DNA from: an uncultured Balneolaceae bacterium
GTDB taxonomy: Bacteria > Bacteroidota > Rhodothermia > Balneolales > Balneolaceae
Direction: 5' to 3'
DNA length: 56,699 nt
Assembly (NCBI GenBank): GCA_937125285.1
Contig: CAKZLH010000012.1
Coordinates: forward strand, 1 to 56,699
Every line of letters begins with the position of its first letter. Positions within the stretch are counted from its first letter, which is position 1. The notes beneath the pieces are model-generated. The model was not told the origin of the DNA and did no database searches. It saw only the letters and a list, made by a program, of their open reading frames with translations. Of the stretch, positions 7,830-52,994 are shown one piece after another. The position numbers and the translations under genes were made by a program.

Positions 7830-8019
7830 TTTTAGGTTGGTTTATTTATAGTACATGGAATTAAAAGAAAAGTCTATGGACATCATCCTAACCTAGAAAT
7901 CTTTCCTAATTTTTGATTAGGTCATGAAAAAAAATATTCCTTATCTTACATATCTATTGAGATTTGGGATTAGCTTTAGTTCATTTGAATTAAGTAAATC
8001 GAACACCTTTTCTCAAAAA

Positions 8020-8060
8020 TGCACCCGTAGCTCAACTGGATAGAGTACCTGACTACGAAT
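8020..8060 (+). repeat. attL: 41-bp direct repeat, truncated 5' part of tRNA-Arg (through the anticodon loop)
   Basis: TGCACCCGTAGCTCAACTGGATAGAGTACCTGACTACGAAT identical to 52373-52413; diverges immediately downstream. Confidence 0.95.
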
Positions 8061-8093
8061 TTGTGCCTCCCTCCCAAAACATTTTTTAAAATA

Positions 8094-8132
8094 AGCCCAC
8101 AAGCACTAAAAAACGAGCTTTTGGGCTTTTTA
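8094..8132 (+). terminator. candidate terminator/attenuator hairpin between truncated tRNA and integrase
   Basis: AAGCCCA ... TGGGCTT followed by TTTTAA. Confidence 0.45.
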
Positions 8133-8151
8133 ATTTCCCTATCTTCCCTCA

Positions 8152-8175
8152 AGTGGGTACATTTGAGGGTACAAA
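8152..8175 (+). repeat. putative integrase arm-type repeat, left copy (two GGGTACA motifs 12 bp apart)
   Basis: AGTGGGTACATTTGAGGGTACAAA identical to 52324-52347. Confidence 0.7.
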
Positions 8176-8189
8176 TTATAGGAGGCAGA

Positions 8190-9335
8190 ATGGCCACATT
8201 AAGAGAAAGAAATGGTAATTATTCGATTCGATTTGTTCAGACAAAAGATGGAAAAAAAGAGTCTTGTCAATTCTCCTTAAGGACTAATAGGAAGAAAATT
8301 GCAGAGAAGCTACAACGTCGTTTAGAAATCGATCAGGAATCAGGTGCAGTTGATGTCTTCAACAATTTCGATTTCCTTTCCTGGAGGGATGGGGCACCAA
8401 AAGTAGAGTCTTTACCCCAAAAGCGTTTGCTCTCTAAAAGCATAGAAGAATTTATTGCCGATAGAACAGACATGGGTCAAAAGAGCCGTGATAACTACAA
8501 GCAGTTATTGAATGCTTTTAATAATAATGTCGGAATTACAATGCTTACTGAATTGATCCAGAAAAGGGATGTTCAGGATTATTGCTTTCGGGATGACATC
8601 AGTGTAAGTACTCAAAATAATTACCTTGCACACCTTAAAACGTTTTTTAAATGGGTGGAATCAAATGGTCATGGAACAGATGTGACTAAAGGGATTCGAA
8701 GAAAGAATGTACCGGAGAATCTGAAAGATCAAATTATTGCTTCAGATAAACTTGAAACCATTATTACTAAACATCAGCAACACATCTCAAGAAAAACTAC
8801 TGACGGGTTTATTCTTTCAGACAGTCGGAAGCAATTGTGGTTTGAGCCTCTAGTTAGGTTTGCTTTTAAAACAGGCCTAAGAAAATCCGAAATTCTGAAG
8901 CTAAAATGGAAACATTTGGACATAAATAACAACCTAATTACTGTCGTAGCAGGAAAAGGTGGAAAATCCAGAACTGTGATTTTTGATAATGAAATTAAGT
9001 TGTTATTAAAGGCTTGGAAGCAGAAAGTAAACAGTGAAGATGATCGATTCGTTTTTGAATCACCTAAATCAACTGTGGAAAAATCTAAACAAATGGCTAG
9101 TAAAACTCCTTCCGATAATTTCAAAACATTTGTTGTAAATGCGGGGTTAGGTAACTATATCCATTTTCATAGCTTGAGACACACTGCTGCAACAAATTAT
9201 TTGAAGGCAGGATACAACCTTTATGAAGTTCAAAAATTGATGGGACATTCTTCGATTTCAGTTACGGAGCGTTATCTTCACTTGGTTCCAAATGATCTAA
9301 GAGAAAAAGCTGAAAGACTTGGGCTATTAGAATGA
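8190..9335 (+). CDS. tyrosine-type site-specific recombinase/integrase
   Basis: TGLRKSEILKLKW, HSLRHTAATNYLKAGYNLYEVQKLMGHSSISVTERYLH (R..HxxR..Y signature); AGGAGG upstream of ATG 8190. Confidence 0.95.
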   Translation: MATLRERNGNYSIRFVQTKDGKKESCQFSLRTNRKKIAEKLQRRLEIDQESGAVDVFNNFDFLSWRDGAPKVESLPQKRLLSKSIEEFIADRTDMGQKSRDNYKQLLNAFNNNVGITMLTELIQKRDVQDYCFRDDISVSTQNNYLAHLKTFFKWVESNGHGTDVTKGIRRKNVPENLKDQIIASDKLETIITKHQQHISRKTTDGFILSDSRKQLWFEPLVRFAFKTGLRKSEILKLKWKHLDINNNLITVVAGKGGKSRTVIFDNEIKLLLKAWKQKVNSEDDRFVFESPKSTVEKSKQMASKTPSDNFKTFVVNAGLGNYIHFHSLRHTAATNYLKAGYNLYEVQKLMGHSSISVTERYLHLVPNDLREKAERLGLLE

Positions 9336-19057: not shown

Positions 19058-20254
19058 ATGAAATCATGGAGAACTTCGCAGTACTTAATCGTTCTGCTCT
19101 TACTAATAACCATCTCATGTGAACTTTCAAAAGAAGATGTAGAATCCTACTTGTCACAAGAGAATTATGAGCGTGTTTATGAATACGTTAAAAAGCAGTT
19201 TGTAAATCATACTACTCAGAATAATCCAGCATTTGAATCGGGTCTCATCGGACTGATTTTTTCTAATACTTCATATAGCACAGAATCAATTAATCTTTTA
19301 ACAAGCTCTGAATATCAAGTATCGGATACAGAGCATTTAGCAACCGTTCTTTGGAAGAAAGCCATTGGTAATGAAGCAGAAATTCCAGAAGGTTTACATC
19401 AGTTCTTGTTTAAAAACTATGAAGTATATGGGAGTAACTTAGAAGAAAGCATCATGGAATATTATAATAGTGACTCCCTGTTCCAGCCATTACTTAAAGG
19501 GGAAATACGTTCAATCAGCCTTTGGGATAAACCTGATTACAAGAAACTTGCTTGGCTAGTGTCCTTTACTACCTTGAATGAACCAAGGAATTACGTTAGT
19601 GAAATTCTCGCTCTCAATATTTCGAAACCAACGCTTTCTAAGAATTTTGATGACAGCTTAAAAGCCAATCAAGTCTGGATTGATGATTATTCAACTCGAA
19701 TCGATAGTTTAAACATTGTATTGCCGACAGTTGCACAAAAATACGAGGAGCAATATCCTAAATATGAGGATCTAAATTCAGCTGTTTTCCAAGTGAACTC
19801 ATTTATTGGAGACTTCCAGGATCGCGGAATTAATTACGAGGCGTACGAAGCAACAATTTTTAGTACCAGCGGAGGTGATGATCAAGTTTTCTCTACTGAA
19901 TATGAAACTTTCATCCTTTTAACTACTGAAAAAAGCTTTTCAAATAGAGGTAGGCATCGTTTTTGGTATTATTTGAAGGATGAAATCCCTGTAAGGTTAA
20001 AAGAAGAATATGGTGGTTTTAAAACTACAATGAAGGTAGTTAAACACGTCGGCGAAAGAGAATTTGACGACATCCTAAATAGTAGTACCCAAGTTTCATC
20101 TATCAATTCTAAAATAGAGCTCTATTCAAGATTACTAGATAGTTTCGAATCAGAGAAAGAGAAAATTGAATTTGAGCGTGACACCAAAATCAAAGAATTA
20201 AATTCAGAAATCGAATTACTTGATAAAAAGCTTAAGGCTTGGGCGAATAATTAG
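19058..20254 (+). CDS. predicted lipoprotein of unknown function with C-terminal coiled-coil
   Basis: Signal peptide LLLLITISC lipobox; charged heptad-like C-terminus. Confidence 0.7.
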   Translation: MKSWRTSQYLIVLLLLITISCELSKEDVESYLSQENYERVYEYVKKQFVNHTTQNNPAFESGLIGLIFSNTSYSTESINLLTSSEYQVSDTEHLATVLWKKAIGNEAEIPEGLHQFLFKNYEVYGSNLEESIMEYYNSDSLFQPLLKGEIRSISLWDKPDYKKLAWLVSFTTLNEPRNYVSEILALNISKPTLSKNFDDSLKANQVWIDDYSTRIDSLNIVLPTVAQKYEEQYPKYEDLNSAVFQVNSFIGDFQDRGINYEAYEATIFSTSGGDDQVFSTEYETFILLTTEKSFSNRGRHRFWYYLKDEIPVRLKEEYGGFKTTMKVVKHVGEREFDDILNSSTQVSSINSKIELYSRLLDSFESEKEKIEFERDTKIKELNSEIELLDKKLKAWANN

Positions 20255-20264
20255 TAGCCCAAAA

Positions 20265-20288
20265 AGAGAAGCTTCGGTTTCTCTTTTA
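20265..20288 (+). terminator. rho-independent terminator
   Basis: AGAGAAGC-TTCG-GTTTCTCT-TTT. Confidence 0.75.
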
Positions 20289-20313
20289 GCCTCAAAATTC
20301 TAACAACTCAAAC

Positions 20314-20748
20314 ATGTTCAATTTTAGAAAGAAATCCCCTGAAGCCAGCGAAGTCCGAAAAAGTAAATGGTTCAAAAATGCCAAAAGCAAGGCTAAGAAT
20401 TACCTGGATTCACCAGATAAAATTCCGAGCTTAATTGAACGGGCAAAGAAGAAAGCAAAAAAGAAAAGCGGACCACTAAGGGAGGTATGGGAAGGGCTGA
20501 TGACCTTCTTCAGGTTACTCAAAGCTTATGCTAAAAAAGAATACAGGGAAATTCCATGGGAATCTATTGTGTTCATACTGGCCTCTATAATTTATTTTGT
20601 CATGCCTTTTGATCTGATCTCCGATTTTTTACCAGGCGGTTTCATTGATGATGCAAGCCTAATAGCCTGGACATTAGGATCTGTCTCGGTTGATATTGAA
20701 AATTTTAGGCAATGGGAAAAAGAAAAAGGCAGACAAACCGATGAATGA
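20314..20748 (+). CDS. YkvA-like (DUF1232) membrane protein
   Basis: ILASIIYFVMPFDLISDFLPGGFIDDASLIAW motif. Confidence 0.88.
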   Translation: MFNFRKKSPEASEVRKSKWFKNAKSKAKNYLDSPDKIPSLIERAKKKAKKKSGPLREVWEGLMTFFRLLKAYAKKEYREIPWESIVFILASIIYFVMPFDLISDFLPGGFIDDASLIAWTLGSVSVDIENFRQWEKEKGRQTDE

Positions 20749-21121
20749 AACTACGAATCAACTCATCATTTCCATGAAAGCCTTCCTATTCTTTGAGGCG
20801 TATGCTCCTAGCGATTTAGATCCCAGTAAGCTTATTTGCAATATCAAAATTGGTGGTGAGGCGTTAGATTCCACTTTAGTTTCGATTGCCCTCAAGAAAT
20901 GGGAAATTCATCACGGTTATAAATTAAAAGCCAACCCCTGGAAGGACAAAAGTATTGAAGAATTAGTGGGGACTGCTCAGAAATTAACTGATGAAGAATA
21001 TCAGACCAATGTTAGCCAGCGAATGGAAGAAATATCAGCGCTTCTATGCCAATATAATGAGCAGTCTAATAGTGAGCATGGGGTACAGGAGAAAGCCGAA
21101 TACCTACTGAATATGAATTAA
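20742..21121 (+). CDS. hypothetical protein
   Basis: Overlaps preceding stop; MNETTNQLIISMKAFLFFEAY.. Confidence 0.55.
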
Positions 21122-21372: not shown

Positions 21373-24300
21373 ATGGCTAGAACTAAAAAAGGAATCAATT
21401 CAGTTAGAGCGTCAAGGGATGGACACGAATATCACGAGAATTGGATAGCTAGAAAATCAATGCAACTACTTCTTCAGGAGGAAAATTTGGTTGGAATAGC
21501 GGTGGAGGGATTAAGTCCAGTCGATGAATTAAAAGCCAAATCAGAAACTGTAGAAATAGCAGATGCAACACTTTACTATGGAGAAAAACCCTCATTTAAA
21601 GAAGCTGAAAAAGTAGTTGTAACACAGTTCAAATATTCAATTTCAAAAAGTGAAGTTGAATTTAGAGCGAGTGATGCTAAGAAAACTATTACGAAATTTG
21701 CTCAAGCATATAAAGATTTGAGTTCAAGGTTTGGACCGGATGAAGTGCATAGTAAGCTTAGTTTTGAACTGATAACTAATCGCCCTATTTATAAGGATTT
21801 TCAAGAAGCTCTTAAAGGAATAGCAAGAAGTGAAACATTAACTGGGGCGGTAAAAAAACAAGCTGAGCAAGTTAAGCGAGTGGTTGATTTAGAAGAGCAG
21901 CAGTTTATACACTTTGTAGAAAGGTGTACAATTGTTGGTTTAACAGGGAACCTATCGGAAATAAAAAAAGATACAGCGAGAACTGTTGTTAATTGGTCTT
22001 CCAGTAACGATGCAATTGCAAGAATAAGATTGGGAGCATTGAGACAACTAGCCAGAGATAAGGCAGGTTATGCGGGATCAAACAACAATATTATTCGAAG
22101 AGTTGATATTTTTGGGTGTTTAGATATTTCGGATGAAGATGAATTATTTCCATGTCCATCAAGTCTTCCAGAAATCAATAAAGTAGTTATACGTAATCAA
22201 CAAGAAAATGCCGTAACGTTCATATCAAAATCGGATACTCCAGTTCTATTAACTGCAAATGGCGGAGTTGGTAAGACAGTTTTTCTATCTAGTCTTAGAG
22301 AACGTTTGTCGCAGGATAATGAGGTACTATTATTTGATTGTTTTGGAGGTGGTACCTACCGATCTCCAGAGGATAGTAGGCATTTACCCAAAAGAGGACT
22401 AGTTCATATTGCAAATACATTAGCATGTAGAAGCTTATGTGATCCAATGTTACCTGGTAACAGTAATTCGGAAGAACTATTTAAAACCTTTAAGAAGCGA
22501 ATAAAGCAAGCTATAAGTGCGATTAAAAAAATCAATTCCAATAGAAATCTGATTCTAATATTGGATGCTATTGACAATGCTGCAGAACATGCTCAAGATA
22601 GGAATGAAGATTCATTTCCTACTCTATTACTAGAAAGTCTGGCCTTTGGTGATAAGATTGAGGGTTTTAAGGTTGTAGTATCCTGTAGACCATATAGGAA
22701 AAAAATATCCATTAGAGAGGGTACGAAAGTAAACGAGTTTGTTCTTTTACCTTTTGATTACTCCGAAACTGAGTTATTCCTAAATAATAATATCAAGAAT
22801 GTAAGTGATGTAGAAGTAAAAGTTGCTTTTGCAAGGTCGGGTGGAAATCCACGAATTCTTGAACATTTGACCAGCAGTGATAGAGGGTTGCTTGATATCT
22901 CTGAAATTCAGAAGACTATTGATTTGAATGATTTAATCAATGAACGAATATCATCCGCGCTTTCTGATATATATAAAAAGGGGTACAAACAAAATGAGAT
23001 CCAACGATTTTTAGCTGGACTTTCAGTTTTACCACCAGCTATACCTATGGATGATTTCGCTGAGATATTTGATATCGAGGAAAGCTTGATAGAAAGTTTT
23101 GCAGCTGATCTCGCTCCATTATTAGAGCGAACTAAATTCGGAATAATATTTAGAGATGAGCCAACAGAAACTTTTGTTAAAAATGAATATGGATCGAGTG
23201 ATAAGTCTCTAAAGTTAGTGGCCGAAAATCTCTTTAAAAAGCAGGAAAAATCAGTTTATGCTACTAGAGCTTTACCTGGACTACTACAAAAAATTGGAGC
23301 TACTGATAAACTTTTCGAACTCGCATTTGATCAAAGATTTCCGAGCTCTGTTTCTAGCTCAACAGGAAAAAGAACAATAAGGCTTTCTAGGCTTAAAGCA
23401 GCACTTAAACAATCATTAAAGGAACAGAATTATAAACAAGTAATTCAGCTAATGGTTGAATTGTCTTCACTTGTTTCAGTAAATCAGAGTGGAACAAATT
23501 ATTTACTTAGTTCTCCCGATTTAACTGCATTATCTAAAGATATACACTCTTTCAGAAGATTGTTTGAGGCCCGAACGAGATGGGGTGGGGCAAGACATTC
23601 TCGTTTAGCAATAGCAAATACTCTTTTAGGGGATTTTCATGAGGCTACAAGAAATATTCAGAATGCAGGAGAATGGGTGCGACATTATGTCGAAAGTGAG
23701 AGGCAAAGAAAAGAAGAAGATGACTACTATCAGAAAGAAGTTCCTAGTCCAGAAAAAATTGATATCGCAGCAATTCCTTTTGGTGAAATTGTTCAAGGCA
23801 ATGTTGACAAAGCTATTTCTTTTATTCGTATTTGGAGGGATTGGTATGCCTATGAGTTTGGAGAATATCTTTTTTCATTTATAAAACAATTTCAAGTTCA
23901 AAATCCAACAGGGGAAAAAGTAGTTGACTCTTTTTTAGACTCTTTATCGAATGAATTCGGTATGCTTACTTCAGCGCTTGCTTTTATTGAACTGGATTCA
24001 AAAAGTTCTAAAAAAATAATCAAAAAGTTAGCTAAGCTTTCAAAAAACTCAAGAGCAAATAGAGAAACAGAGAGAGATTGGAAATGGAAGAACCAATTGC
24101 AGTATGGACTTCTCAAGGTATCTGTATTAGCAACCCTAAATGGTTGTGAAAAAGAAACGCTTCAAATACAAAAGTCAATCAGGACAAAAAGGCCAAGAAC
24201 TTATACATTTTCTTCACACCAGTATTCATACGAGGCAGCTGAATATTTCATTCAGAAAGCAATTATAGCCAATGCACAAAAAAAAGCTTTAAAAAAGAAT

Positions 24301-27300
24301 GATTTTTTACCCGAGGAGTTATGGAGTACTATAAAGGGGAAAAGAATAAAAGAAGCTGACTTTTGGGATAGAGTTAAGGAAGAGATAGAAAACGAATATC
24401 AGATACAAATTAAGAATCTCGAAAATAAAAGAGATGGGGCTTATAATCGTAAAGAAGAGTCAGAGAAGTTTTTGAATACCATTTTCAGTGATCTTTTCAA
24501 CCTTACCGATGCCTTCAAAAACACACTTGATGATTCTCATGACCCAAATCAAGCTTTTATACAGTTTTTAGATAGATGGAAAGAAATTAATAATAAGTCT
24601 AATAATTATATCTCCAGAAATAAAAGTCGCTTTTTTGAACAGTATGGAGCTTCATTAGGTATTTTCACTCTGTGGGTTCGAAAAGACCTAAATCAGGTTG
24701 CAATTGAAAAGTTTATAGTCTGTATTGAAGAGCTTGAATTCAAAAACATTGATCGACTTATATTTATAGTTTCAATTTTGTCAGGTAGGGCTACTTTACA
24801 TGAACTCGCAGGGAAAGTAGCAATAAAAGCGAAAGCGTTAATAGATCAAGAGAGTGATATTGATGAACGTGCCCCATTATGTATAAAATTGAGCCGGGCG
24901 TTATTTATGGCAAGTACCAGTGAAGCAACTGCATTGTACAAACAGGGCTTAGAGCTTATGGACTCAATTGGTTCGGGTGATTATTGGTATATATCCGAAT
25001 TATTACATTTTGTGACAAAACTAAAGGGCGAAGAAATATCTGAGGAGAATGGACATGTACTAACAAATTTATGTGAGTTAAACATGCCCTACGATGAAGA
25101 AAAATTCCCATGGTCTACCTTTGGTATGGCTCTATCAAATGTGATGGGCATGAAAACACTTTCAAAACTATCTAGATGGGATGATAGAGGAAAAATAAGG
25201 TTAGAATATACGTTACGGCCCTTTCTGTATGGCCTTATTTATTATGGAAAAATTTGTCCGGAATTAGCACTTTCGCTTAACCTTTTAACTAACCCTGCTG
25301 AGTTACATGGAAGTGATACGAAAGATTTCGCTATGCTTTTGAAAACTAAGAGCTACTCAAATATGACGGACGTGATTCTTGAATCCTTAAGGCAGTATGA
25401 TATGAATTTAAAAGGGTTTCCTTACGGAGAAACTCTTGAATTCTTCTCTACTGCTATACAGGAAATAGTAGGTTTTGATTCAGAATTGTTCAAAGAATTA
25501 CAACTTAGTTCCGAACACTTTGAAAAGGTACGAATTGAGGAAAATAAAACTAATTATCCCGAAGAACCTCATACCAAATTACCGGGAAGATTAAACGAAA
25601 AAGAACAGGCGAAAAAAAGAGAATTGCTTGATTTGTCTAAATCAATTAATCCAATTGATGCACTTGAAATCAGTAAGGTATTAGAAAAAGCAAATGAACG
25701 AGAATATTTTCATCAAATAAGAGAGTTCTTGGGTCACCTCAGGTTAAAAGTAAGCTTTTCTGATAGAGCAAAGTATATTTCGGTTATAGCTGGAATAGCA
25801 AATCTGGGTTATCATTTAAAAATTTGGGAACTTAAAGCCTGTAAAAAAGAATGGGAACCTTCATCATTAGGTCTTAATGAAAACTTTCAAGAATTATCTG
25901 GCACACTTTTAACACTACATATTGACGAGCTGATTGAGAATGACAGATTTTCAAGTTATGACTTTACAACAATTGCTAAGTTAACAGGTGTAGATCAAAA
26001 AAAATTAACTTTACAACTAGTTCAATTTCTGATAAATAATGAAATCGAGACACCTGGTTCAGCATGGGTATCATTAGCCAGCAATATTTCGGACGAACTA
26101 TCTGAAGGAATAGGACAAAAGTCGCTAGTAAGACTATTACAAAGTAGCGCAATAGAGCTTGCTCGAAATGTAGAAGATGGCGAGTGGACTTCTGAATTAT
26201 ATTTGGAAAATGATGAAGTAGAAGTTTCAGCTAGTCTAATTTGGCATCGCTTAGGATCACCCTATGCCGAAGAAAGATGGAGAGCTGGACACAGCATTCG
26301 TTGTTTAGCAAAATTTAATCGTTGGGATACGATAGAGTCTATTGTAAACAAAGCTCGGAATGAAAAACCAAATTCATTTTTACCATCGGAGTTCAAGTTT
26401 TTTTATCTGCATGCAAAACTATGGCTCTTGATCAGTTTAGCAAGGCTCGCTTTAGACTACCCAGAAGAAATATCTAACTTTGAGGAGTTCCTCTTTTCTT
26501 TTTTACTGGATGATAATGAGTTCCATGTCTTAATGAAAAACTTTGCAGCTAGTGCTTTACTATCGTGTTATAGTAAAGGTGGAATCGAGCTAAGTGAGAA
26601 TCAAGTAGAGGTACTTGAAAATGTGAATCTTTCTATCCTAGATAAGGTCGAATCTAAATTCCCAAAATTCCTTGGAATACATCCTACAAAATCAAAAGAT
26701 ATCTCAATTCCAAATAAAGAATACTTTTTAGATATAGATTTTAGAAAGTACCAGGTTAATCATTTAAGTGATTTATTTGACGTACCATTTTCCATAGTTG
26801 AAGGCTTGGTTATTGAGGTTGCTGATCTACTCGATTCTGAAATTGAGCATATGCATGAAAATAATGGACGACCTAGCCATAGAAGAGACAGGTATCACAG
26901 AATGAGTGATGATTTTCATACTTACGGACAATACATTGGTTGGCATTCATTATTTATTACTGCAGGAATCCTGCTTTCAAAAGTTGCACTAGTAGAGGAT
27001 GAATATGATGAAAATCCTTGGAAAACTTGGTTGAAAGGATACACTCTTTCAAAAGCAGACGGTTTATGGCTATCTGATGGACTTGATAGTATCCCTCTGG
27101 ATACTAAAGTTAATCTTCTGGAGAGGAAAGAGAATATAATATGTCTTACAGGAGATGAAACAATACTTAAGTCTTTATTTGGGATTGAAAATGCAGTCTT
27201 TAAAAAGATTGTAGTTAAGGGCTCTTTTAATTCAGGAGATAATGTTTCTGTTCTTATAAATTCGAGCTTAATCGATCCAAAAGATTCATCAGTATTGATT

Positions 27301-27852
27301 AAAAAATTATTGGATGAACAACCTTTTCATGTTTGGTTACCAAGTTTTGAAATAGGTGAAACAGAAGAAGAATACACTAGAAATAAAATTCGAGAATTCG
27401 AACCTTGGTTAAGTCAACGACATGCAGAGCCGGGTATTGATGAGTATGATCCTTTTGGAGTTACCAGAACCATCCAGAGGCCAATGTTTTCGAAAGAAAT
27501 CCAGTCAGAGTTCAAAATAAGTAGCGAGGACTCATTCAATAGATATTGGAAAAAATTAGACAACAAAATTATTGCGCGATCAGAGGCATGGGGATATGAA
27601 GATAATATCGATAGCTCAAATTCAAATACTGGTGTTCGCCTTAGTTGTACCCCTGAATTGATATCAGAAATACTATCTACATTAGATAAAAAACTTCTCA
27701 TACTTATTAAACTTGAAAGATATGAAACGGGAGAGGAACGACATTCTAGTGGGAAATTTTCACATACAATTGCACTAGCAGAAATTGATAAACATCTAAA
27801 GTATAAATTCCATATTGGAGCTGTTAACCATATACATAAGAATAGATTATAA
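21373..27852 (+). CDS. Avs-like STAND NTPase with N-terminal predicted PD-(D/E)XK (DUF4297/Cap4-like) nuclease domain; candidate antiphage protein
   Basis: 2159 aa; N-terminal GHEYHENWIARKSMQLLL...EIADATLYY...VVVTQFKYS, Walker A-like TANGGVGKTVFLSSL, Walker B-like NLILILDAIDNAAE, long helical repeat-like C-terminus. Confidence 0.75.
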   Translation: MARTKKGINSVRASRDGHEYHENWIARKSMQLLLQEENLVGIAVEGLSPVDELKAKSETVEIADATLYYGEKPSFKEAEKVVVTQFKYSISKSEVEFRASDAKKTITKFAQAYKDLSSRFGPDEVHSKLSFELITNRPIYKDFQEALKGIARSETLTGAVKKQAEQVKRVVDLEEQQFIHFVERCTIVGLTGNLSEIKKDTARTVVNWSSSNDAIARIRLGALRQLARDKAGYAGSNNNIIRRVDIFGCLDISDEDELFPCPSSLPEINKVVIRNQQENAVTFISKSDTPVLLTANGGVGKTVFLSSLRERLSQDNEVLLFDCFGGGTYRSPEDSRHLPKRGLVHIANTLACRSLCDPMLPGNSNSEELFKTFKKRIKQAISAIKKINSNRNLILILDAIDNAAEHAQDRNEDSFPTLLLESLAFGDKIEGFKVVVSCRPYRKKISIREGTKVNEFVLLPFDYSETELFLNNNIKNVSDVEVKVAFARSGGNPRILEHLTSSDRGLLDISEIQKTIDLNDLINERISSALSDIYKKGYKQNEIQRFLAGLSVLPPAIPMDDFAEIFDIEESLIESFAADLAPLLERTKFGIIFRDEPTETFVKNEYGSSDKSLKLVAENLFKKQEKSVYATRALPGLLQKIGATDKLFELAFDQRFPSSVSSSTGKRTIRLSRLKAALKQSLKEQNYKQVIQLMVELSSLVSVNQSGTNYLLSSPDLTALSKDIHSFRRLFEARTRWGGARHSRLAIANTLLGDFHEATRNIQNAGEWVRHYVESERQRKEEDDYYQKEVPSPEKIDIAAIPFGEIVQGNVDKAISFIRIWRDWYAYEFGEYLFSFIKQFQVQNPTGEKVVDSFLDSLSNEFGMLTSALAFIELDSKSSKKIIKKLAKLSKNSRANRETERDWKWKNQLQYGLLKVSVLATLNGCEKETLQIQKSIRTKRPRTYTFSSHQYSYEAAEYFIQKAIIANAQKKALKKNDFLPEELWSTIKGKRIKEADFWDRVKEEIENEYQIQIKNLENKRDGAYNRKEESEKFLNTIFSDLFNLTDAFKNTLDDSHDPNQAFIQFLDRWKEINNKSNNYISRNKSRFFEQYGASLGIFTLWVRKDLNQVAIEKFIVCIEELEFKNIDRLIFIVSILSGRATLHELAGKVAIKAKALIDQESDIDERAPLCIKLSRALFMASTSEATALYKQGLELMDSIGSGDYWYISELLHFVTKLKGEEISEENGHVLTNLCELNMPYDEEKFPWSTFGMALSNVMGMKTLSKLSRWDDRGKIRLEYTLRPFLYGLIYYGKICPELALSLNLLTNPAELHGSDTKDFAMLLKTKSYSNMTDVILESLRQYDMNLKGFPYGETLEFFSTAIQEIVGFDSELFKELQLSSEHFEKVRIEENKTNYPEEPHTKLPGRLNEKEQAKKRELLDLSKSINPIDALEISKVLEKANEREYFHQIREFLGHLRLKVSFSDRAKYISVIAGIANLGYHLKIWELKACKKEWEPSSLGLNENFQELSGTLLTLHIDELIENDRFSSYDFTTIAKLTGVDQKKLTLQLVQFLINNEIETPGSAWVSLASNISDELSEGIGQKSLVRLLQSSAIELARNVEDGEWTSELYLENDEVEVSASLIWHRLGSPYAEERWRAGHSIRCLAKFNRWDTIESIVNKARNEKPNSFLPSEFKFFYLHAKLWLLISLARLALDYPEEISNFEEFLFSFLLDDNEFHVLMKNFAASALLSCYSKGGIELSENQVEVLENVNLSILDKVESKFPKFLGIHPTKSKDISIPNKEYFLDIDFRKYQVNHLSDLFDVPFSIVEGLVIEVADLLDSEIEHMHENNGRPSHRRDRYHRMSDDFHTYGQYIGWHSLFITAGILLSKVALVEDEYDENPWKTWLKGYTLSKADGLWLSDGLDSIPLDTKVNLLERKENIICLTGDETILKSLFGIENAVFKKIVVKGSFNSGDNVSVLINSSLIDPKDSSVLIKKLLDEQPFHVWLPSFEIGETEEEYTRNKIREFEPWLSQRHAEPGIDEYDPFGVTRTIQRPMFSKEIQSEFKISSEDSFNRYWKKLDNKIIARSEAWGYEDNIDSSNSNTGVRLSCTPELISEILSTLDKKLLILIKLERYETGEERHSSGKFSHTIALAEIDKHLKYKFHIGAVNHIHKNRL

Positions 27853-27919
27853 TTTCACTTACAAATCCTTAACTAGATTCAGCATTGGATTATTTTGGTT
27901 TGAATCTGGAGAATCCACA

Positions 27920-28564
27920 ATGATCGATTATTTAGACATCTACCTTCACCCAATTCATTTTGAAGCAGAAGAGCTTGTAGAAATTATTCAGAATTCGTTA
28001 ACACAATCCGGGGTTTTTGAATTTCAAGAAGAAGAGAGCACTGATTATGCTCGTGATATTTTCAGCGCAGCTTGCATTGTTAATTATTTAGAAAATGATG
28101 TCCCAGTTGCGAAATTGGCTTTTGCCAAGGCTTCTACCAGAAAGGGACTTTATCTCGCAAATATTGTTCCTAAGCCCAGTGGTTCTATTTCAATGGAAAA
28201 ATACAATGAAATTGGACTGCTTTTTATTCGTGAGTTTAAGGCGTTTTACATCTACCAAGATAAACGGGTTACTATCACATCAACTGGGGAAGCTATTGCC
28301 TTAGCCGATATTATACCTGGAAGTAAAACACGTACATTTTTCCAGAGATATTTGAATGCCCACCCTCTTAGCTACCATCCTTTGGATATAGAAAGATTAG
28401 ACGTTTTTATTTGTGCCCATTCAAGGTTCCGCTCATCTATTAAACTTGAGCTTTTGAATCGTTATTTAAAAGAAGAATTAAATTGGGATAAAAAGGATGC
28501 CAATTGGTGCACTAAAAGAATTAGTACTGGGCTTCGAGTATTAGAGGTTAATCGGAAATTTTAA
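27920..28564 (+). CDS. hypothetical protein in candidate defence operon
   Basis: ORF from internal ATG 27920, 2 bp before next gene; ORF-track start 27815 overlaps the STAND gene and seems less likely. Confidence 0.65.
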   Translation: MIDYLDIYLHPIHFEAEELVEIIQNSLTQSGVFEFQEEESTDYARDIFSAACIVNYLENDVPVAKLAFAKASTRKGLYLANIVPKPSGSISMEKYNEIGLLFIREFKAFYIYQDKRVTITSTGEAIALADIIPGSKTRTFFQRYLNAHPLSYHPLDIERLDVFICAHSRFRSSIKLELLNRYLKEELNWDKKDANWCTKRISTGLRVLEVNRKF

Positions 28565-28566
28565 TC

Positions 28567-29268
28567 ATGAATATACCCGTCAGTTCACTTGGAGTAGCCT
28601 ATGATTATGAAGAAATTCTTCCTTCCAAAGATTCAATTGACTTCTTCGCAGAACGATTTGAGGGCTCTCCTTCGGACACAAAAAGAATCGAACAAGTGTT
28701 AGTTCGATGGCTTTTTACCCGTTCTTCGGCAAAAGATCTGCTCTATACTGCACTTGGTTTAAATGATAATCCTATTCTAAAGTTTGAAATTTCGAAACCC
28801 TTCTCAGAAAGAGAATTTGATGTTCTCAGTTGGAACCGAGGAGCTCCACATGAAGCAGTAGCTGTAGAATGCAAAAGAGCAAAAATTAAGAAAGAAAGTT
28901 TCCTAAACGATGATGTTACTGGTTTACATAAACTTTCCGAGGGAGTTATCCAAGCAGACAAACTGCTTGAAGTAGGCTTTTTTAAGACATATTTATTGAT
29001 CATGACTGTGGTTGATGGCAGAGAAAGAACTATGTACAATCAATTATCAAGAGGTGCAAACAAAGTGCAATTAGATAGAATTTTTGACTTCCCCAATCGA
29101 GATGAGCTACATAAAGATGTTGGACTTATATTTGTAGAAATTGTGCAAACGACTGATGCTCCTTTGTCTCAAACTGGATTCATCTCAGTCTCTGTAGCTC
29201 GATCGTCAACTCCTCAGACTCAAAAGCCAATTTTGACTAAAAAAATTGCCCAACAAATTATTAACTAG
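28567..29268 (+). CDS. predicted PD-(D/E)XK nuclease-like protein in candidate defence operon
   Basis: EREFDVLSWNRGAPHEAVAVECKRAK fits a D...ExK active-site pattern. Confidence 0.55.
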   Translation: MNIPVSSLGVAYDYEEILPSKDSIDFFAERFEGSPSDTKRIEQVLVRWLFTRSSAKDLLYTALGLNDNPILKFEISKPFSEREFDVLSWNRGAPHEAVAVECKRAKIKKESFLNDDVTGLHKLSEGVIQADKLLEVGFFKTYLLIMTVVDGRERTMYNQLSRGANKVQLDRIFDFPNRDELHKDVGLIFVEIVQTTDAPLSQTGFISVSVARSSTPQTQKPILTKKIAQQIIN

Positions 29269-29849: not shown

Positions 29850-29974
29850 GGATAAAATAGTCTCTGGCTTACTTAAGCCATGGAAAAGGTACGCTTCACA
29901 CACAGGTTCTTCGTCTTTTCCCACTATTTCAAATGCTGAGTGATTACTCAGCCTATCTCTCTAAATCCGAAATC

Positions 29975-32900
29975 ATGTTAAATAAAACCATACGTTTTTT
30001 TCTTGAAAACAAGTTGATAGCAATACTTCTGTTGCTACTATTAATAGGCTGGGGAATCATCGTATCTCCTTTTGGTTGGAGTTTTGCTTCCTTACCAAGC
30101 GACCCAGTCCCAGTTGATGCCATCCCTGATCTGGGCGAGAATCAACAAATCGTTTACACTCCTTGGGCAGGTCAATCCCCACAGGATGTAGAAGACCAAA
30201 TTACCTATCCACTAACAACTCAGTTACTTACAGTTCCTGGTGTAAAAACAGTTCGCAGCACCTCTATCATTGGCTTTTCCAGCATATATGTCATTTTCAA
30301 CGAAGAGGTGGATTTTTACTGGAGCCGATCACGCATCCTCGAAAAACTGAATTCCCTACCTGGCGGAACCCTCCCTGAAGATGTAACACCAGCACTTGGT
30401 CCCGATGCCACGGGGCTTGGTCAGGTTTTTTGGTACACTCTAGAAGGTCGCGATGAAGAAGGGAATCCGGCCGGAGGTTGGGATCTTCAGGAGCTTCGTA
30501 GTATTCAGGATTATTATGTGGGATATGCACTTTCCGGGGCTGAAGGTGTAGCTGAAGTATCACCAATAGGAGGTTACATAAAAGAATATCAGGTAGATGT
30601 GAACCCAAACTTACTTCAGGTGTATAATATAAGCCTCACTGATGTATTTAATGCCGTTCGCAAAAGTAATGCAGAGGTAGCTGCCAGAACCATTGAGCTT
30701 AATAATGCAGAATACCTGATTCGTGGATTAGGCTATATACGCGGTCTTGAAGATCTGGAGGAATCGGTAGTTAAAGTGGTAGACAATACTCCAGTTCGGG
30801 TAAAGGACGTAGCCTTTGTAACGATGGGACCCGCCATGCGGCGCGGTGCCTTGGATAAGGCGGGAGCGGAAGCAGTGGGAGCTGTTGTCGTTGCCCGCCA
30901 GGGAGCAAACCCGCAAGAAGTGATTGATAATGTAAAAGCTAAAATCAAAGAACTAAGCCCCGGACTGCCCATTAAAACCCTCGCTGATGGTACATCATCA
31001 AAAGTAACCATCGTCCCGTTTTATGATCGTTCGGAGTTAATTTCTGAAACATTAGGTACTTTAGAAGAAGCTCTCACCCTCGAAATCCTGATTACGATTA
31101 TTGTCATTGTAATCATGGTTATGAATTTGCGCACCTCCTTCCTCATTTCAGCTATGTTACCGGTGGCCGTGCTAATGACCTTTATAGCCATGAAATACGG
31201 AGGGGTTGACGCAAATATTGTTGCCCTTTCTGGAATAGCTATTGCTATCGGAACCATTGTAGATATGGGAGTAATCCTCTCTGAAAATATGCTGCGCCAT
31301 ATTGAGAATAAAAGTGAGGATGAGCCTTTACTTGAAGTTATTTACAATGCGACCACTGAAGTCGCTTCAGCTGTTGTTACAGCAGTTTCTACTACTATCG
31401 TAAGTTTCCTACCTGTGTTCACAATGATTGCAGCAGAAGGGAAACTGTTCAAACCATTGGCTTACACCAAAACTTTTGCTTTAGTAGCTTCCATAATCAT
31501 TTCCATTACTCTTATCCCACCCTTTGCTCATTGGCTGTTTTCAATCAGGATTAATAAACGGATAATAAAACTGTTCTGGAACCTAGCATTAGTAACCGTT
31601 GGAGTAATCATTCTTATTATAGGTCCTATCTGGGCAGGCTTGGCATTAATTGGATTTGGGTTCATTAATGGTTCTACACTATTTCTTTCTGATAAATTTG
31701 CAAATAGAACAAAATTTCTCAACAATGGATTAAGTGTAGTTATTGTGACCTGGCTACTCACACAATACTGGCTCCCACTCGGTCCGTCAACTGCATTCAC
31801 TTGGAATTTATTCTTTGTGATTTTACTAATTGGTATGATCCTATTGAGTTTTTGGCTGGTCATTCATTATTACGGGGTTCTAATAGCCTGGTGCCTGGAT
31901 CACAAACTCACATTTCTTTCTATTCCTTCCTTCTTCATGATACTCGGAATGGTTATTTGGTTGGGATTCGGGACTGTTTTCGGATTCATTGGCAAAACAG
32001 GTCTTGAACATACGCGACTCTGGTCAGCAGCAGAAGAAACCTTCCCCGGATTGGGTAAAGAATTCATGCCAGCCTTAGATGAAGGTGCCTTTCTACTTAT
32101 GCCCACTACAATGCCTCATGCCGGAGTTGAAGAAGCACTTGATGTTATGCAGAAAATTGATATGGCAGTTGCAGCAATACCGGAAGTAGAAAATGTAGTT
32201 GGTAAAATGGGGCGTACAACTTCTGCGCTCGATCCTGCTCCCATTTCTATGTATGAAAACCTTATTGAATACAAATCCGAGTATAAAACCGGTGAGGATG
32301 GACGTCGAATCCAATTTAAAATAGATAGTTATGGAGAGTTTGTTCGAGATGAATCAGGAGAGTTAATTCCCGACCAAAATGGAAAATACTTTCGTCAATG
32401 GCGTGATCATATTCAAACACCCGATGACATCTGGAATGAAATTGTAGCCGCAGCCAAAATTCCAGGAACAACCTCAGCTCCTAAACTCCAGCCTATTCAG
32501 ACCCGGTTAGTTATGTTGCAATCTGGTATGAGAGCACCAATGGGTGTGAAAGTAAAAGGCCCCAATCTGGAAACGATTGAAGCTTTCGGACTTCAGCTGG
32601 AGGAAGTATTAAAACAGACTCCTGGTGTAAACCCTTCTTCCGTATTTGCTGACCGTATCGTTGGAAAGCCTTACCTCGAAATAAACTGGGATCGAACCCA
32701 ACTGGCTCGGTATGGACTTTCTGTGCAGGACGTACAGCGATTTGTAACCATTGGAATTGGCGGTATGCCCGCATCAACTTCAGTAGAAGGTCGCGAGCGA
32801 TATCCTATCCGAGTACGATATGCAAGAGAATTCCGGGATAGCCCTGAAGCTATCTCTGGTTTACTAGTTCCCACAGAATCAGGTGCCCAGATACCCCTCT

Positions 32901-33715
32901 CTCAACTTGCAAGTATTGAATTTCGCAGAGGACCTCAAGCCATCAAAAGTGAGGATACCTTCCTGATTGGATACGTGATTTTTGATAAAACCGACGACTA
33001 TGCCGAGGTTGAGGTTATTGAAAACGCACAACAAACAATTCAGCAAAAAATAGCGGATGGTTCTTTGAATATACCTGCCGGTATCAGTTTTGAATTTGCC
33101 GGGAGTTATGAAAATCAGGTTCGGGCTGAAAAGCGATTGGGGATCATCCTACCTATCGCACTCATCGCCATTTTCCTGATTATGTATTTCCAGTTCAAAT
33201 CTGTTGCTACAACAGGTATGATTTTCACCAGCATTTTCGTGGCTTGGGCAGGAGGGTTCCTTCTCGTATGGCTCTATGGACAACCTTGGTTTTTGGATTT
33301 CGACCTGTTTGGACAGAATCTCCGGGATCTTTTTCAAATGGGCAAAATAAATCTGAGCGTAGCCGTTTGGGTCGGGTTTATAGCTCTCTTCGGTGTGGCT
33401 TCTGATGGAGGTGTGGTAATGGCAACCTACCTCGATCAATTATTTGATCGCAAGAAGCCTTCAAGCAATGAAGAGATTAGGGCTGCGGTAATAGAAGCAA
33501 GTACCCGAAGAATTCGACCCACCCTCATGACCACAGCCACTACCATTCTGGCTTTAATACCAGTACTCACCTCAACAGGGCGTGGAGCTGATATTATGGT
33601 TCCCATGGCAATTCCAAGTGTGGGTGGAATGCTCCTTCAGGTCATAACCCTGTTCGTCGTGCCTGTTCTTTATGCAATTTGGAAAGAATTCAACCTCAAA
33701 AGGAGCTTAAAATGA
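29975..33715 (+). CDS. cusA: CusA/CzcA-family heavy-metal efflux RND transporter (Cu/Ag-type)
   Basis: DPVPVDAIPDLGENQQIVYTPWAGQSPQDVEDQITYPL and GVASDGGVVMATYLDQ motifs; start at MLNKTIRFFLENK. Confidence 0.93.
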   Translation: MLNKTIRFFLENKLIAILLLLLLIGWGIIVSPFGWSFASLPSDPVPVDAIPDLGENQQIVYTPWAGQSPQDVEDQITYPLTTQLLTVPGVKTVRSTSIIGFSSIYVIFNEEVDFYWSRSRILEKLNSLPGGTLPEDVTPALGPDATGLGQVFWYTLEGRDEEGNPAGGWDLQELRSIQDYYVGYALSGAEGVAEVSPIGGYIKEYQVDVNPNLLQVYNISLTDVFNAVRKSNAEVAARTIELNNAEYLIRGLGYIRGLEDLEESVVKVVDNTPVRVKDVAFVTMGPAMRRGALDKAGAEAVGAVVVARQGANPQEVIDNVKAKIKELSPGLPIKTLADGTSSKVTIVPFYDRSELISETLGTLEEALTLEILITIIVIVIMVMNLRTSFLISAMLPVAVLMTFIAMKYGGVDANIVALSGIAIAIGTIVDMGVILSENMLRHIENKSEDEPLLEVIYNATTEVASAVVTAVSTTIVSFLPVFTMIAAEGKLFKPLAYTKTFALVASIIISITLIPPFAHWLFSIRINKRIIKLFWNLALVTVGVIILIIGPIWAGLALIGFGFINGSTLFLSDKFANRTKFLNNGLSVVIVTWLLTQYWLPLGPSTAFTWNLFFVILLIGMILLSFWLVIHYYGVLIAWCLDHKLTFLSIPSFFMILGMVIWLGFGTVFGFIGKTGLEHTRLWSAAEETFPGLGKEFMPALDEGAFLLMPTTMPHAGVEEALDVMQKIDMAVAAIPEVENVVGKMGRTTSALDPAPISMYENLIEYKSEYKTGEDGRRIQFKIDSYGEFVRDESGELIPDQNGKYFRQWRDHIQTPDDIWNEIVAAAKIPGTTSAPKLQPIQTRLVMLQSGMRAPMGVKVKGPNLETIEAFGLQLEEVLKQTPGVNPSSVFADRIVGKPYLEINWDRTQLARYGLSVQDVQRFVTIGIGGMPASTSVEGRERYPIRVRYAREFRDSPEAISGLLVPTESGAQIPLSQLASIEFRRGPQAIKSEDTFLIGYVIFDKTDDYAEVEVIENAQQTIQQKIADGSLNIPAGISFEFAGSYENQVRAEKRLGIILPIALIAIFLIMYFQFKSVATTGMIFTSIFVAWAGGFLLVWLYGQPWFLDFDLFGQNLRDLFQMGKINLSVAVWVGFIALFGVASDGGVVMATYLDQLFDRKKPSSNEEIRAAVIEASTRRIRPTLMTTATTILALIPVLTSTGRGADIMVPMAIPSVGGMLLQVITLFVVPVLYAIWKEFNLKRSLK

Positions 33716-34995
33716 GACAAATTTATAAATTTTACTATCTACTCATTCTACTTACTGTTTCTCTATCAGCAAACGCTGTAAGCCAAACACTGGAAGAGTA
33801 TCAGACTCAAGCTGCGCAAAATAACCCACAGTTACGTGCTGTTTATTTTGAGTATCTGGCATCACTCCAAAAAGCTCCTCAGGTTAGCGCACTTCCCGAT
33901 CCGGAAGTTGCATTTGCATACTTCATCAGCCCGATAGAAACCCGGCTGGGACCTCAAAGAGCAAGACTCTCTGCCACCCAAATGTTTCCTTGGTTTGGCT
34001 CCCTGGATGATCGTGAGGCAGAAAGCAATCTTAATGCAAAAGCTAAATTTGAGCAGTTCCAAGAACACAGGAATCGTCTGTTTTATAATATGGAACAACT
34101 TTGGGCCGAGCTGTATGAGATTCAGGAGCAGATCCTTCTCGCAAATAAAAACCTAGAGATTGTAAACACCCTTGTTAACACCAGTCTACGTAAGTATGAA
34201 ACCGGACTTGTTCCGCAAGTAGATGTATTACGAGCCCAAATTGAACAAGAGGATCTAAAAACAAAAATCCAGTTGCTGGAAGACAATAAAGAACTTCTGA
34301 TAAAGCAGTTTAATGAGCTTAGAAACATAGAACCTGATGAAACGATTCTTCTGCCAGACACCCTGCCAAAAAATTCGGTATCGACAGTCGATGAACAAGA
34401 GTTGTTAATTAAAGTTAACGCTCGTAATCCTAATTTGAATCAGCTGCGATATAAAGAAGAAGCAGCTGAAAGAGCTATTCAAATTGCGGAAAATAATGGA
34501 AACCCTTCTTTCGGAATTGGATTGGATTATATCGCTACTGGTGAGCGGAATGATATCACATCATTAACTGACAATGGTAAGGATGTCTTTATTGCTCGAT
34601 TAAGTGTAAAAGTTCCCTTATTCAGAAGAAAGTATAGAGCACAAGCTGAGGAGGCAATACTACTCCGATCTGCTGCTCAGGATAGAATCGTGGCCAGTGA
34701 AAACCAACTTGAAACAAGTTTCTATTCTGCTTTACGTGATCTTGAAGATGCTCACCTACGCTTTAAACTCTATGATGAGCAACAAATACAACGAGTAAAT
34801 CAAGCTGTAAATATTCTCCTTCAATCCTATGCATCTGACAATTCGCAGTTCGAGGAGATCCTGAGACTAGAACGAAAATTATTCGCCTATGAGCTTGAAC
34901 GAGTGAAAGCCAAGGCAGATGAATTTCAGGTAATAAGCTACATCCACTACTTGAGTGGTGAACAAAATACAACTCCAGAAGACATTAAATACTAA
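33712..34995 (+). CDS. TolC-family outer-membrane efflux protein (CusC-like)
   Basis: Signal peptide; TolC-like helical repeats; ATGA overlap with cusA. Confidence 0.88.
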   Translation: MRQIYKFYYLLILLTVSLSANAVSQTLEEYQTQAAQNNPQLRAVYFEYLASLQKAPQVSALPDPEVAFAYFISPIETRLGPQRARLSATQMFPWFGSLDDREAESNLNAKAKFEQFQEHRNRLFYNMEQLWAELYEIQEQILLANKNLEIVNTLVNTSLRKYETGLVPQVDVLRAQIEQEDLKTKIQLLEDNKELLIKQFNELRNIEPDETILLPDTLPKNSVSTVDEQELLIKVNARNPNLNQLRYKEEAAERAIQIAENNGNPSFGIGLDYIATGERNDITSLTDNGKDVFIARLSVKVPLFRRKYRAQAEEAILLRSAAQDRIVASENQLETSFYSALRDLEDAHLRFKLYDEQQIQRVNQAVNILLQSYASDNSQFEEILRLERKLFAYELERVKAKADEFQVISYIHYLSGEQNTTPEDIKY

Positions 34996-35005
34996 TCCCA
35001 GATTC

Positions 35006-36328
35006 ATGAAAAACTTAAGAACAATCCTCATTTACATTTCCGTTGGAATAATAGGAATACTCATTGGTGCATTTCTATTCCGTGGAGATTCAAAACCGCA
35101 AACCCTGAATGAACATATTTTGGAAGCTCATACTAATGAGCAAGGCGAAATTATATACACCTGTAGTATGCATCCCCAAATCCGTCAAAAAGAACCTGGA
35201 AACTGCCCAATTTGTGGAATGCAGCTTGTTCCTGTTGATAATCCATCTTCACAGGCTAGTCCTAATGATCTTGTTATGACTCAAGCGGCTATGAAACTTG
35301 CAGAGATTGAAACTACACCTGTATTAAAAAATAAACCCATTTCTTCGATTCGACTACCAGGAAAAGTGGCTGTGAATCAAAACAAAAGTTCCGCTATCAC
35401 ATCACATATTTCAGGACGAATTACTGAACTATACATTGATTTTGAAGGAGACTTTGTAGAAGCCGGTGAGCGAGTGGCTTCTGTTTATTCTCCTGAGCTT
35501 ATTGCCGCCCAACAGGAATTATTTGAGACTGCTAAGTATAAGGAACAAAATCCTGTACTGTATCAGGCAGCAAGAAAGAAACTGGAACTCTGGGAGCTGC
35601 CTTTGTCCACTATTAACGAAATCGAAAATGGGAATACAGTCATGGAGAGCGTGGATATCGTTTCTCCCGTCTCTGGATTTGTCCAGCAAATTAACGTTCA
35701 ACGCCAACAGCATGTAATGGCCGGTTCCGTAATGTATAAGGTGGCAGACTTATCTTCGGTTTGGGTGATGTTTGATGCCTATGAATCAAATGTGTCCGTT
35801 CTTAAAACAGGTCAGCAAATTCACTTTAGTACAACTTCATATCCGGGACAAGTTTTTACCGGCATTGTAGATTACATCGACCCTTCCCTTCAGAATAATT
35901 CCCGCTCGCTTAAGATTCGGGTGGAAGCTGAAAACCCACAGAACCGATTGAAACCAAATATGTTGGTTGAAGGAGTACTTAATGCTTCAGTCAGTGAAGA
36001 AAGCCTACTCTTAATTCCAAGATCAGCCATTCTCTGGACGGGAATCCGGTCTGTGGTTTTTGTTAAAAAAAATGATTCTACAGAGCCGACATTTTCCGCT
36101 CGTGAAATAGTGTTAGGAGAACGAGTGGGAGATCAATATGTAGTTCTGGAAGGTCTTGAAGAAGGAGAAGAGGTTGTTACCAATGGAACATTCAAACTAG
36201 ACAGCGCTGCCCAGCTTGCAGACAAGCTGAGTATGATGAATCGAAATCCCGGCTCCGGAGCTAATCGAACGGGGCACGAAGGACACACGATGGATAATAA
36301 TGCTACCGGAAATAGCCAGACTTCTTAA
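35006..36328 (+). CDS. cusB: efflux RND periplasmic adaptor (CusB-like) with heavy-metal-binding domain
   Basis: YTCSMHPQIRQKEPGNCPICGMQLVP; membrane-fusion HlyD-like core; stop TAA 36326-36328 is in frame with the downstream DUF3347-like ORF. Confidence 0.9.
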   Translation: MKNLRTILIYISVGIIGILIGAFLFRGDSKPQTLNEHILEAHTNEQGEIIYTCSMHPQIRQKEPGNCPICGMQLVPVDNPSSQASPNDLVMTQAAMKLAEIETTPVLKNKPISSIRLPGKVAVNQNKSSAITSHISGRITELYIDFEGDFVEAGERVASVYSPELIAAQQELFETAKYKEQNPVLYQAARKKLELWELPLSTINEIENGNTVMESVDIVSPVSGFVQQINVQRQQHVMAGSVMYKVADLSSVWVMFDAYESNVSVLKTGQQIHFSTTSYPGQVFTGIVDYIDPSLQNNSRSLKIRVEAENPQNRLKPNMLVEGVLNASVSEESLLLIPRSAILWTGIRSVVFVKKNDSTEPTFSAREIVLGERVGDQYVVLEGLEEGEEVVTNGTFKLDSAAQLADKLSMMNRNPGSGANRTGHEGHTMDNNATGNSQTS

Positions 36329-52347: not shown

Positions 52348-52373
52348 ATTTAGAAAACCATAAAAAACTATAT

Positions 52374-52447
52374 GCACCCGTAGCTCAACTGGATAGAGTA
52401 CCTGACTACGAATCAGGCGGTTAGAAGTTCGAATCTTCTCGGGTGTA
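52374..52447 (+). tRNA. tRNA-Arg (anticodon ACG)
   Basis: Acceptor GCACCCG/CGGGTGT, anticodon arm CCTGA-CTACGAA-TCAGG, T-arm AGAAGTTCGAATCTTCT; 74 nt. Confidence 0.95.
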
Positions 52448-52994
52448 CAATTAATTTAAGCTAAGTAACATAATTACAGTTATTTAGCTTTTTTATTTTG
52501 TAGGAACTGTACAAGTTTTGTACAACTTATCTATAGTTAAGAGTGTTTTAGCTACAAATCAAGTCAAGTACAGTTTAATTCGATTCTGTATTTCTCTTAT
52601 TACGAATGTATATAAGAGTTGGGAAAAGAATAATCACAACTCCCCAAAGAACAATATAGAATGTGAGATCTTGACCATCTCTCCATGCACTGTAGGTTAA
52701 AAGTGTGGTTATCAAAAGACCTACTAGTCCATTTAGTTTCATCAGTTTATTTTTCATTGATCTATCAAGATTTGTTCAAATTTATTTCAACTAAATTTGG
52801 CCCCTAAGGGCCAAAGTCAAGGTGGGTGGGAGTTAGGTTTATCCCGCTATTGCACTCCCTAAAAAGAAAGTAAAGTACACGGAATAAAGCCACTCACTCC
52901 GCCACTATATATAGTACATGGAGTGGAGTGAGTAAACAAAAACCCCCACTAACTATATGCTAGTAGGGCGCATAAAGACTGACTAGAAGCTAAT

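What the first reader, a model, noticed from the sequence alone, without database searches (positions are those of the whole stretch)
21373..29268. Candidate three-gene defence system: Avs-like STAND NTPase + unknown protein + stand-alone PD-(D/E)XK protein
The 2159-aa protein has a predicted nuclease-like N-terminus (EIADATLYY...VVTQFKYS), a P-loop (NGGVGKT) with Walker B-like ILILDAID, and a very long helical C-terminus, the architecture of antiviral STAND (Avs) proteins. Two tightly spaced downstream genes (27920-28564; 28567-29268) follow on the same strand, the last with a D...ExK nuclease pattern (EREFDVLSWN...VAVECKRAK). Known large Avs proteins with a nuclease effector are often single-gene; two nuclease-like proteins plus an unknown partner at one locus could be a variant. 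The operon relationship is inferred from spacing only.
Basis: partly seen in the sequence, partly recalled or inferred. Interest (0 to 1): 0.75.

Follow-up and report, generated by a model that had tools for sequence, protein, structure and literature searches.

The report
Lone Avs3-like defence protein beside nuclease pair
A mobile 44-kb metal-resistance island carries a giant phage-sensing suicide protein of the known Avs3 type, without its usual small partner Avs3b, and next to it a separate, so far undescribed two-gene module that looks like an antitoxin plus a DNA-cutting enzyme; they probably do not form one three-gene system.

Summary
The three genes are real and at the stated coordinates. 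The 2159-aa protein is an Avs3 (AVAST type 3) relative: it aligns to SeAvs3 (PDB 8dgc) over nearly its whole length and keeps the nuclease residues (D64, Q85-x-K87), Walker A (K301) and Walker B (D398). It falls in a fully supported sister clade (Cupriavidus, Janthinobacterium, Agrobacterium; a Rhizobium copy and an inovirus-like contig resemble it). That clade lacks Avs3b, whereas all 12 canonical loci examined have it. The two small genes are not Avs3b and occur next to no other Avs3. Gene 3 is a PD-(D/E)XK protein (D85, ExK 101-103; fold match to PaqCI) whose 26 relatives follow an unrelated partner on Flavobacteriaceae elements. Gene 2 has five remote relatives; three sit directly upstream of a PIN-domain nuclease (one beside a CBASS-like operon), two are orphans on phage-like elements. 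Best reading: a single-gene Avs3-like abortive-infection sensor, plus an independent toxin-antitoxin-like pair with interchangeable nucleases. Both are cargo of a 44.4-kb island bounded by a 42-bp repeat of tRNA-Arg. The three-gene-system idea is not supported, though too few relatives of gene 2 are known to exclude it.

The parts
21373..27852 (+). Avs3-like STAND NTPase, 2159 aa: N-terminal Cap4/DUF4297-like PD-(D/E)XK nuclease (D64, Q85-x-K87), NTPase (Walker A 296-302, Walker B D398), long C-terminal sensor region
   Evidence: PADLOC Avs3a E 2e-207; NF041816 777 bits, E 3e-233; PDB 8dgc SeAvs3 E 2e-121 over 11-985 and 1144-2121; residues invariant in 15 homologues
27920..28564 (+). Gene 2, 214 aa, no Pfam/NCBIfam/PADLOC family; remote relative of a ~215-aa family found upstream of PIN-domain nucleases; inferred antitoxin-like partner of gene 3
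   Evidence: Profile of four relatives finds it at E 1.2e-10 among 5021 frames; alignment A5; partners
28567..29268 (+). Gene 3, 233 aa, PD-(D/E)XK nuclease-like protein (D85, E101-C102-K103, Q129); inferred toxin/effector
   Evidence: Invariant residues in 11 sequences; AlphaFold pTM 0.73, mean pLDDT 66; Foldseek best match PaqCI restriction endonuclease, E 2e-4, prob 1.00
8019..8060 (+). Left att repeat: 42 bp identical to the 5' part of tRNA-Arg
   Evidence: Exact repeat with 52372-52413; no tRNA found here
8061..9335 (+). Tyrosine integrase of the island
   Evidence: Pfam Phage_integrase E 2e-37; begins immediately after the left repeat
52372..52448 (+). Right att repeat (52372-52413) within intact tRNA-Arg (acg) 52374-52448
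   Evidence: ARAGORN; exact repeat
29933..36328 (+). CusA/CusC/CusB-type heavy-metal efflux genes directly after the module; shared cargo type with flavobacterial gene-3 elements
   Evidence: 60% identical to the 1250-aa neighbour of gene-3 homologues; HlyD/HMBD, OEP

Best explanation
Two independent defence-type modules lie next to each other as cargo of a 44.4-kb integrative island. (1) The big gene is a single-gene Avs3-like receptor. By homology to Avs3, its C-terminal region binds a conserved phage protein made during infection (most likely the large terminase subunit), it oligomerises through the STAND NTPase, and the N-terminal nucleases cut DNA in the infected cell, which dies before phage is released. 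Unlike canonical Avs3 it works without Avs3b. (2) Genes 2 and 3 form a toxin-antitoxin-like pair: gene 3 is a PD-(D/E)XK nuclease held in check by gene 2, released by phage infection or loss of the island. Shown here: homology, domain order, conserved catalytic residues, absence of Avs3b, phylogeny, the unlinked occurrence of the small genes, island boundaries. Inferred: the ligand, oligomerisation, DNA cleavage, cell death, toxicity of gene 3 and neutralisation by gene 2.
For: Avs3 identity. Catalytic D64/Q85/K87, K301 and D398 are invariant across 15 Avs3 proteins; the D-Q-K triad type is part of the nuclease site needed for defence in DUF4297-HerA, whose nuclease dimer superimposes on SeAvs3's (PMC11291478). 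Nuclease effectors of Avs1-Avs4 cause altruistic death after sensing terminase or portal (PMC12931631). Tree: window + Cupriavidus 100/100, five-member clade 100/100. Avs3b profile hits all 12 canonical loci L028-L039 and none of window, L023-L027, L089. Gene 3 and gene 2 never near another Avs3. Gene 2 relatives directly upstream of PIN_12 proteins in three of five cases, one next to CD-NTase/ThiF/Mov34/SAVED genes. Gene 3 relatives form tight two-gene operons (3-bp gap in 23 of 26 loci). Island.
Against: The 67-bp gap and lack of a terminator allow co-transcription of all three genes. Only five gene-2 relatives are known, all remote (18-22% overall identity in A5), and none is paired with a PD-(D/E)XK gene, so the swap of nuclease is inferred from this one locus. 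The flavobacterial gene-3 set is heavily sampled from a few recently spread elements (5 clusters at 80% identity). The gene-2 structure prediction failed (pLDDT 38). No experiment was possible.
Confidence: 0.74

Rival explanations
1. A true three-component Avs3 variant in which genes 2 and 3 replace Avs3b, for example gene 3 as a second nuclease effector and gene 2 as adaptor.
For: Same strand, 67-bp and 2-bp spacing, no terminator between them; Avs3b is missing and occupies exactly this downstream place in canonical loci.
Against: Six other Avs3b-less relatives (L023-L027, L089) have no such genes, including the closest ones from Cupriavidus (36%) and L089 (35%); gene 2 is not Avs3b by profile comparison (hhalign prob 0.25%); both small families occur without Avs3.
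Confidence: 0.12
2. Genes 2 and 3 are a defence or restriction-like pair (gene 2 a sensor or specificity subunit, gene 3 a DNA nuclease) rather than a toxin-antitoxin pair; still separate from the Avs3-like gene.
For: Gene 3 resembles a type IIS restriction enzyme fold; the S. meliloti gene-2 relative sits in a defence island beside a CBASS-like operon.
Against: No methyltransferase was recognised among the window proteins scanned; gene-2 relatives pair with PIN domains, which are usually RNases (established knowledge of VapC-like proteins), so a DNA-specificity role is unlikely; orphan gene-2 copies on phage-like elements fit an antitoxin better.
Confidence: 0.25
3. The big gene is a decayed or non-immune STAND protein, for example a regulator.
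For: Scores far below the NCBIfam equivalog cut-off (777 of 2800 bits).
Against: Complete frame and all catalytic residues kept.
Confidence: 0.04

Closest known systems
Avs3 / AVAST type 3 (SeAvs3, PDB 8dgc)
   Same: Same domain order and near full-length alignment, same nuclease triad type and Walker motifs
   Different: About 27-31% identity in nuclease/NTPase and 17-24% in the C-terminal regions to the Klebsiella copy; below the equivalog cut-off; no Avs3b gene
Unannotated single-gene relative on Cupriavidus necator plasmid p1 (NZ_CP068436.1) and IMG/VR contig L089
   Same: 35-36% identity over the full length; no Avs3b
   Different: No gene 2 or gene 3 next to them
Two-gene toxin-antitoxin modules of the VapBC (antitoxin + PIN nuclease) type
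   Same: Order partner-then-nuclease, gap or overlap of a few bases, on plasmids and genomes
   Different: Gene 2 family matches no known antitoxin family; here the nuclease is PD-(D/E)XK, not PIN
Flavobacterial pair of a 303-aa protein plus PD-(D/E)XK protein on metal-resistance elements (unnamed; e.g. L041, L044)
   Same: Gene 3 homologue, same order and spacing, integrase and CusA-type cargo nearby
   Different: The upstream partner is unrelated to gene 2 (hhalign prob 0.1%)
PaqCI type IIS restriction endonuclease (PDB 8em1)
   Same: Best fold match of the gene 3 model
   Different: Partial match only (TM 0.37 on query length); no methyltransferase recognised here

Membership tests
Avs3 (AVAST type 3) | N-terminal Cap4/DUF4297-like nuclease with D...QxK | tested here: met
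   D64, Q85, K87 invariant in 15 homologues
Avs3 (AVAST type 3) | STAND NTPase with Walker A and B | tested here: met
   GGVGKT with K301, D398; Pfam NPHP3_N and NACHT at E 3e-5 and 5e-5, just under their cut-offs
Avs3 (AVAST type 3) | Long C-terminal sensor region alignable with SeAvs3 | tested here: met
   Second stretch 1144-2121 aligns to 1095-2050 of SeAvs3, E 1e-45
Avs3 (AVAST type 3) | Score above the Avs3a equivalog cut-off of NCBIfam NF041816 | tested here: not met
   777.4 bits against 2800; Cupriavidus relative 740.3. Hence filed as Avs3-like sister branch, not as Avs3a
Avs3 (AVAST type 3) | Avs3b gene directly downstream | tested here: not met
   Avs3b profile hits 12 of 12 canonical loci, none in window or sister clade
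Avs3 (AVAST type 3) | Activation by phage large terminase subunit and cell death | not testable with these tools
   Needs co-expression and plaque assays
PD-(D/E)XK nuclease superfamily (gene 3) | Conserved D...ExK and restriction-endonuclease-like fold | tested here: met
   model only moderately confident
Type II toxin-antitoxin module (genes 2+3) | Tight two-gene operon, partner plus nuclease | tested here: met
   2-bp gap; relatives with PIN partners
Type II toxin-antitoxin module (genes 2+3) | Match to a known toxin or antitoxin family | tested here: not met
   No Pfam, NCBIfam or PADLOC match for gene 2 or 3
Type II toxin-antitoxin module (genes 2+3) | Toxicity of gene 3 and neutralisation by gene 2 | not testable with these tools
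   Needs expression assays
Single three-gene Avs system | Repeated co-occurrence of the three genes | tested here: not met
   sample of gene-2 relatives is small

The most novel reading that the evidence does not exclude
Gene 2 belongs to an undescribed partner family that is combined with interchangeable nucleases (PIN or PD-(D/E)XK) as a phage-triggered toxin-antitoxin module; orphan gene-2 copies on phages act as anti-defence antitoxins; and on this island the module has been stacked with an Avs3b-independent branch of Avs3.
Probability: 0.3. Interest if true: 0.58.

Novelty: new variant of a known kind. Interest (0 to 1): 0.42.

Why it matters
The comparison asks why canonical Avs3 always carries Avs3b in the loci examined while a whole sister clade does without it, which makes the unknown role of Avs3b testable. 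The small pair points to an undescribed partner family that accompanies different nucleases and appears as orphans on phage-like elements, a pattern expected for phage defence and counter-defence.

Tried and rejected
Gene 2 as Avs3b: rejected by HMM and profile comparison. Gene 2 as homologue of the 303-aa flavobacterial partner: rejected. Gene 2 by single-protein scans of viral and GTDB contigs: nothing. Serratia phage Totoro match to gene 2 (E 0.6): not recovered by the later gene-2 profile, treated as chance. AlphaFold of gene 2 from single sequence: pLDDT 38, not used. Matches to the gene-2 profile in G094, G028 and G078: short and weak; the G078 one aligns to a sigma-factor-like protein. 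The original papers on Avs (Science 2020 and 2022) are not held. Flanking direct repeats around the three genes alone: only imperfect, chance-like ones.

Full report
Observation. The three ORFs are at the stated coordinates on the + strand. The gaps are 67 bp and 2 bp. Codon usage supports genes 2 and 3 as real genes, and an open frame of the length of gene 2 is very unlikely by chance. No terminator-like site separates gene 1 from gene 2, so co-transcription is possible.

Gene 1 is an Avs3 relative. PADLOC gives Avs3a at E 2e-207 and NCBIfam NF041816 Avs3a at 777 bits, below its 2800-bit equivalog cut-off. In the PDB the only real match is SeAvs3 (8dgc), aligned over 11-985 and 1144-2121. In an alignment of 15 homologues the nuclease residues D64, Q85 and K87, the Walker A K301 and the Walker B D398 are invariant. 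A D-Q-K triad was mutated in DUF4297-HerA, where nuclease-site mutants lose defence and whose nuclease dimer superimposes on the SeAvs3 nuclease (PMC11291478). Nuclease effectors of Avs1-Avs4 kill the infected cell after sensing terminase or portal proteins (PMC12931631). The ligand of this protein is therefore inferred, not shown.

Its clade lacks Avs3b. The closest relatives are a 2171-aa protein on a Cupriavidus necator plasmid (36% identity) and a 2151-aa protein on an IMG/VR contig with inovirus-like genes (35%). A maximum-likelihood tree puts the window protein with Cupriavidus (100/100) inside a five-member clade (100/100) separate from ten canonical Avs3. In the canonical loci an Avs3b of about 230-290 aa as called overlaps the end of Avs3a. 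An Avs3b profile hits all 12 canonical loci and none of the window, the five plasmid loci of the sister group (one of them, in Rhizobium, broken by an IS630 insertion) or L089. Six of the 12 canonical sequences built that profile, so for those the hit is by construction; the other six are independent.

Genes 2 and 3 are not Avs3b and not linked to Avs3 elsewhere. None of the 18 Avs3 loci examined (L023-L039, L089) carries them, and none of 26 gene-3 loci carries Avs3 or gene 2. In other species of the same family, the metal-efflux genes that follow gene 3 here are preceded by quite different genes.

Gene 3. Its relatives (26-30% identity) come from Flavobacteriaceae. D85, E101, C102 and K103 are invariant. 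The AlphaFold model (pTM 0.73, pLDDT 66) shows the expected order of strands and helices around these residues and matches PaqCI best (E 2e-4). In these loci the gene follows a 303-314-aa protein, usually with a 3-bp gap, next to an integrase and often metal-efflux genes. These loci are few independent events: five clusters at 80% identity, and the search patterns were derived partly from them, so the sample leans towards this group.

Gene 2. It matches no curated family. Weak plasmid matches (E 0.02-0.04) proved real: a profile of four relatives without the window protein finds gene 2 at E 1.2e-10 among 5021 frames. In Sinorhizobium chiapasense, S. meliloti and genome G042 (same family as the window) the relative is followed directly by a PIN_12 protein; the S. 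meliloti pair follows a nucleotidyltransferase/ThiF/Mov34/SAVED operon, a CBASS-like set. Two relatives are orphans on phage-like elements: a Fischerella plasmid with a terminase gene, and an IMG/VR contig where the gene lies beside a distal tail gene. Partner-before-nuclease order, tight spacing and orphan copies on phage-like elements are what a toxin-antitoxin module would show; this function is inferred.

Setting. A 42-bp exact repeat (8019-8060 and 52372-52413) bounds a 44.4-kb island: the right copy is the 5' part of tRNA-Arg, and a tyrosine integrase starts right after the left copy. Cargo includes RadC, YqaJ recombinase, DUF932 and several metal-efflux systems. In sister genome G003 the genes that lie left of the island (2534-5820) sit a few kb from the same tRNA, without the island; a second, diverged tRNA repeat there marks a 2.9-kb stretch.

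Verdict. A member of an Avs3b-less sister branch of Avs3, next to an independent toxin-antitoxin-like nuclease pair. The three-gene system is unlikely but not excluded.

Noticed in passing
window 8019-52448: A 44.4-kb integrative island with 42-bp exact repeats at a tRNA-Arg (acg), integrase at 8061, metal-resistance cargo; sister genome G003 lacks it at the same tRNA.
   Followed up: yes
L044-L067, L042, L043: A two-gene operon (303-314 aa + PD-(D/E)XK) lies next to an integrase in 24 of 26 flavobacterial loci and often before metal-resistance genes; looks like recently spread mobile elements.
   Followed up: partly
L089 1537-7992: Avs3-like gene without Avs3b on an IMG/VR contig that also encodes a Zot-like protein, a replication initiator and an integrase (inovirus-like).
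   Followed up: partly
L027 5001-12891: Avs3-like gene of a Rhizobium plasmid interrupted by an IS630 family transposase.
   Followed up: no
L029 9522-10202: Downstream of avs3b on Klebsiella plasmid pKPN692_2, a frame broken by stops whose C-terminal part shares the motif N-STG-HPSD-R...GWD with the gene-2 family (E 9e-6).
   Followed up: partly
window 13144-15285: 713-aa protein of the island with no Pfam match, between an AAA/DnaB-like ATPase gene and a RadC gene.
   Followed up: no
window 19058-21121: Three small genes just upstream of the Avs3-like gene (398 aa without family, DUF1232 protein, 143 aa without family), role unknown.
   Followed up: no
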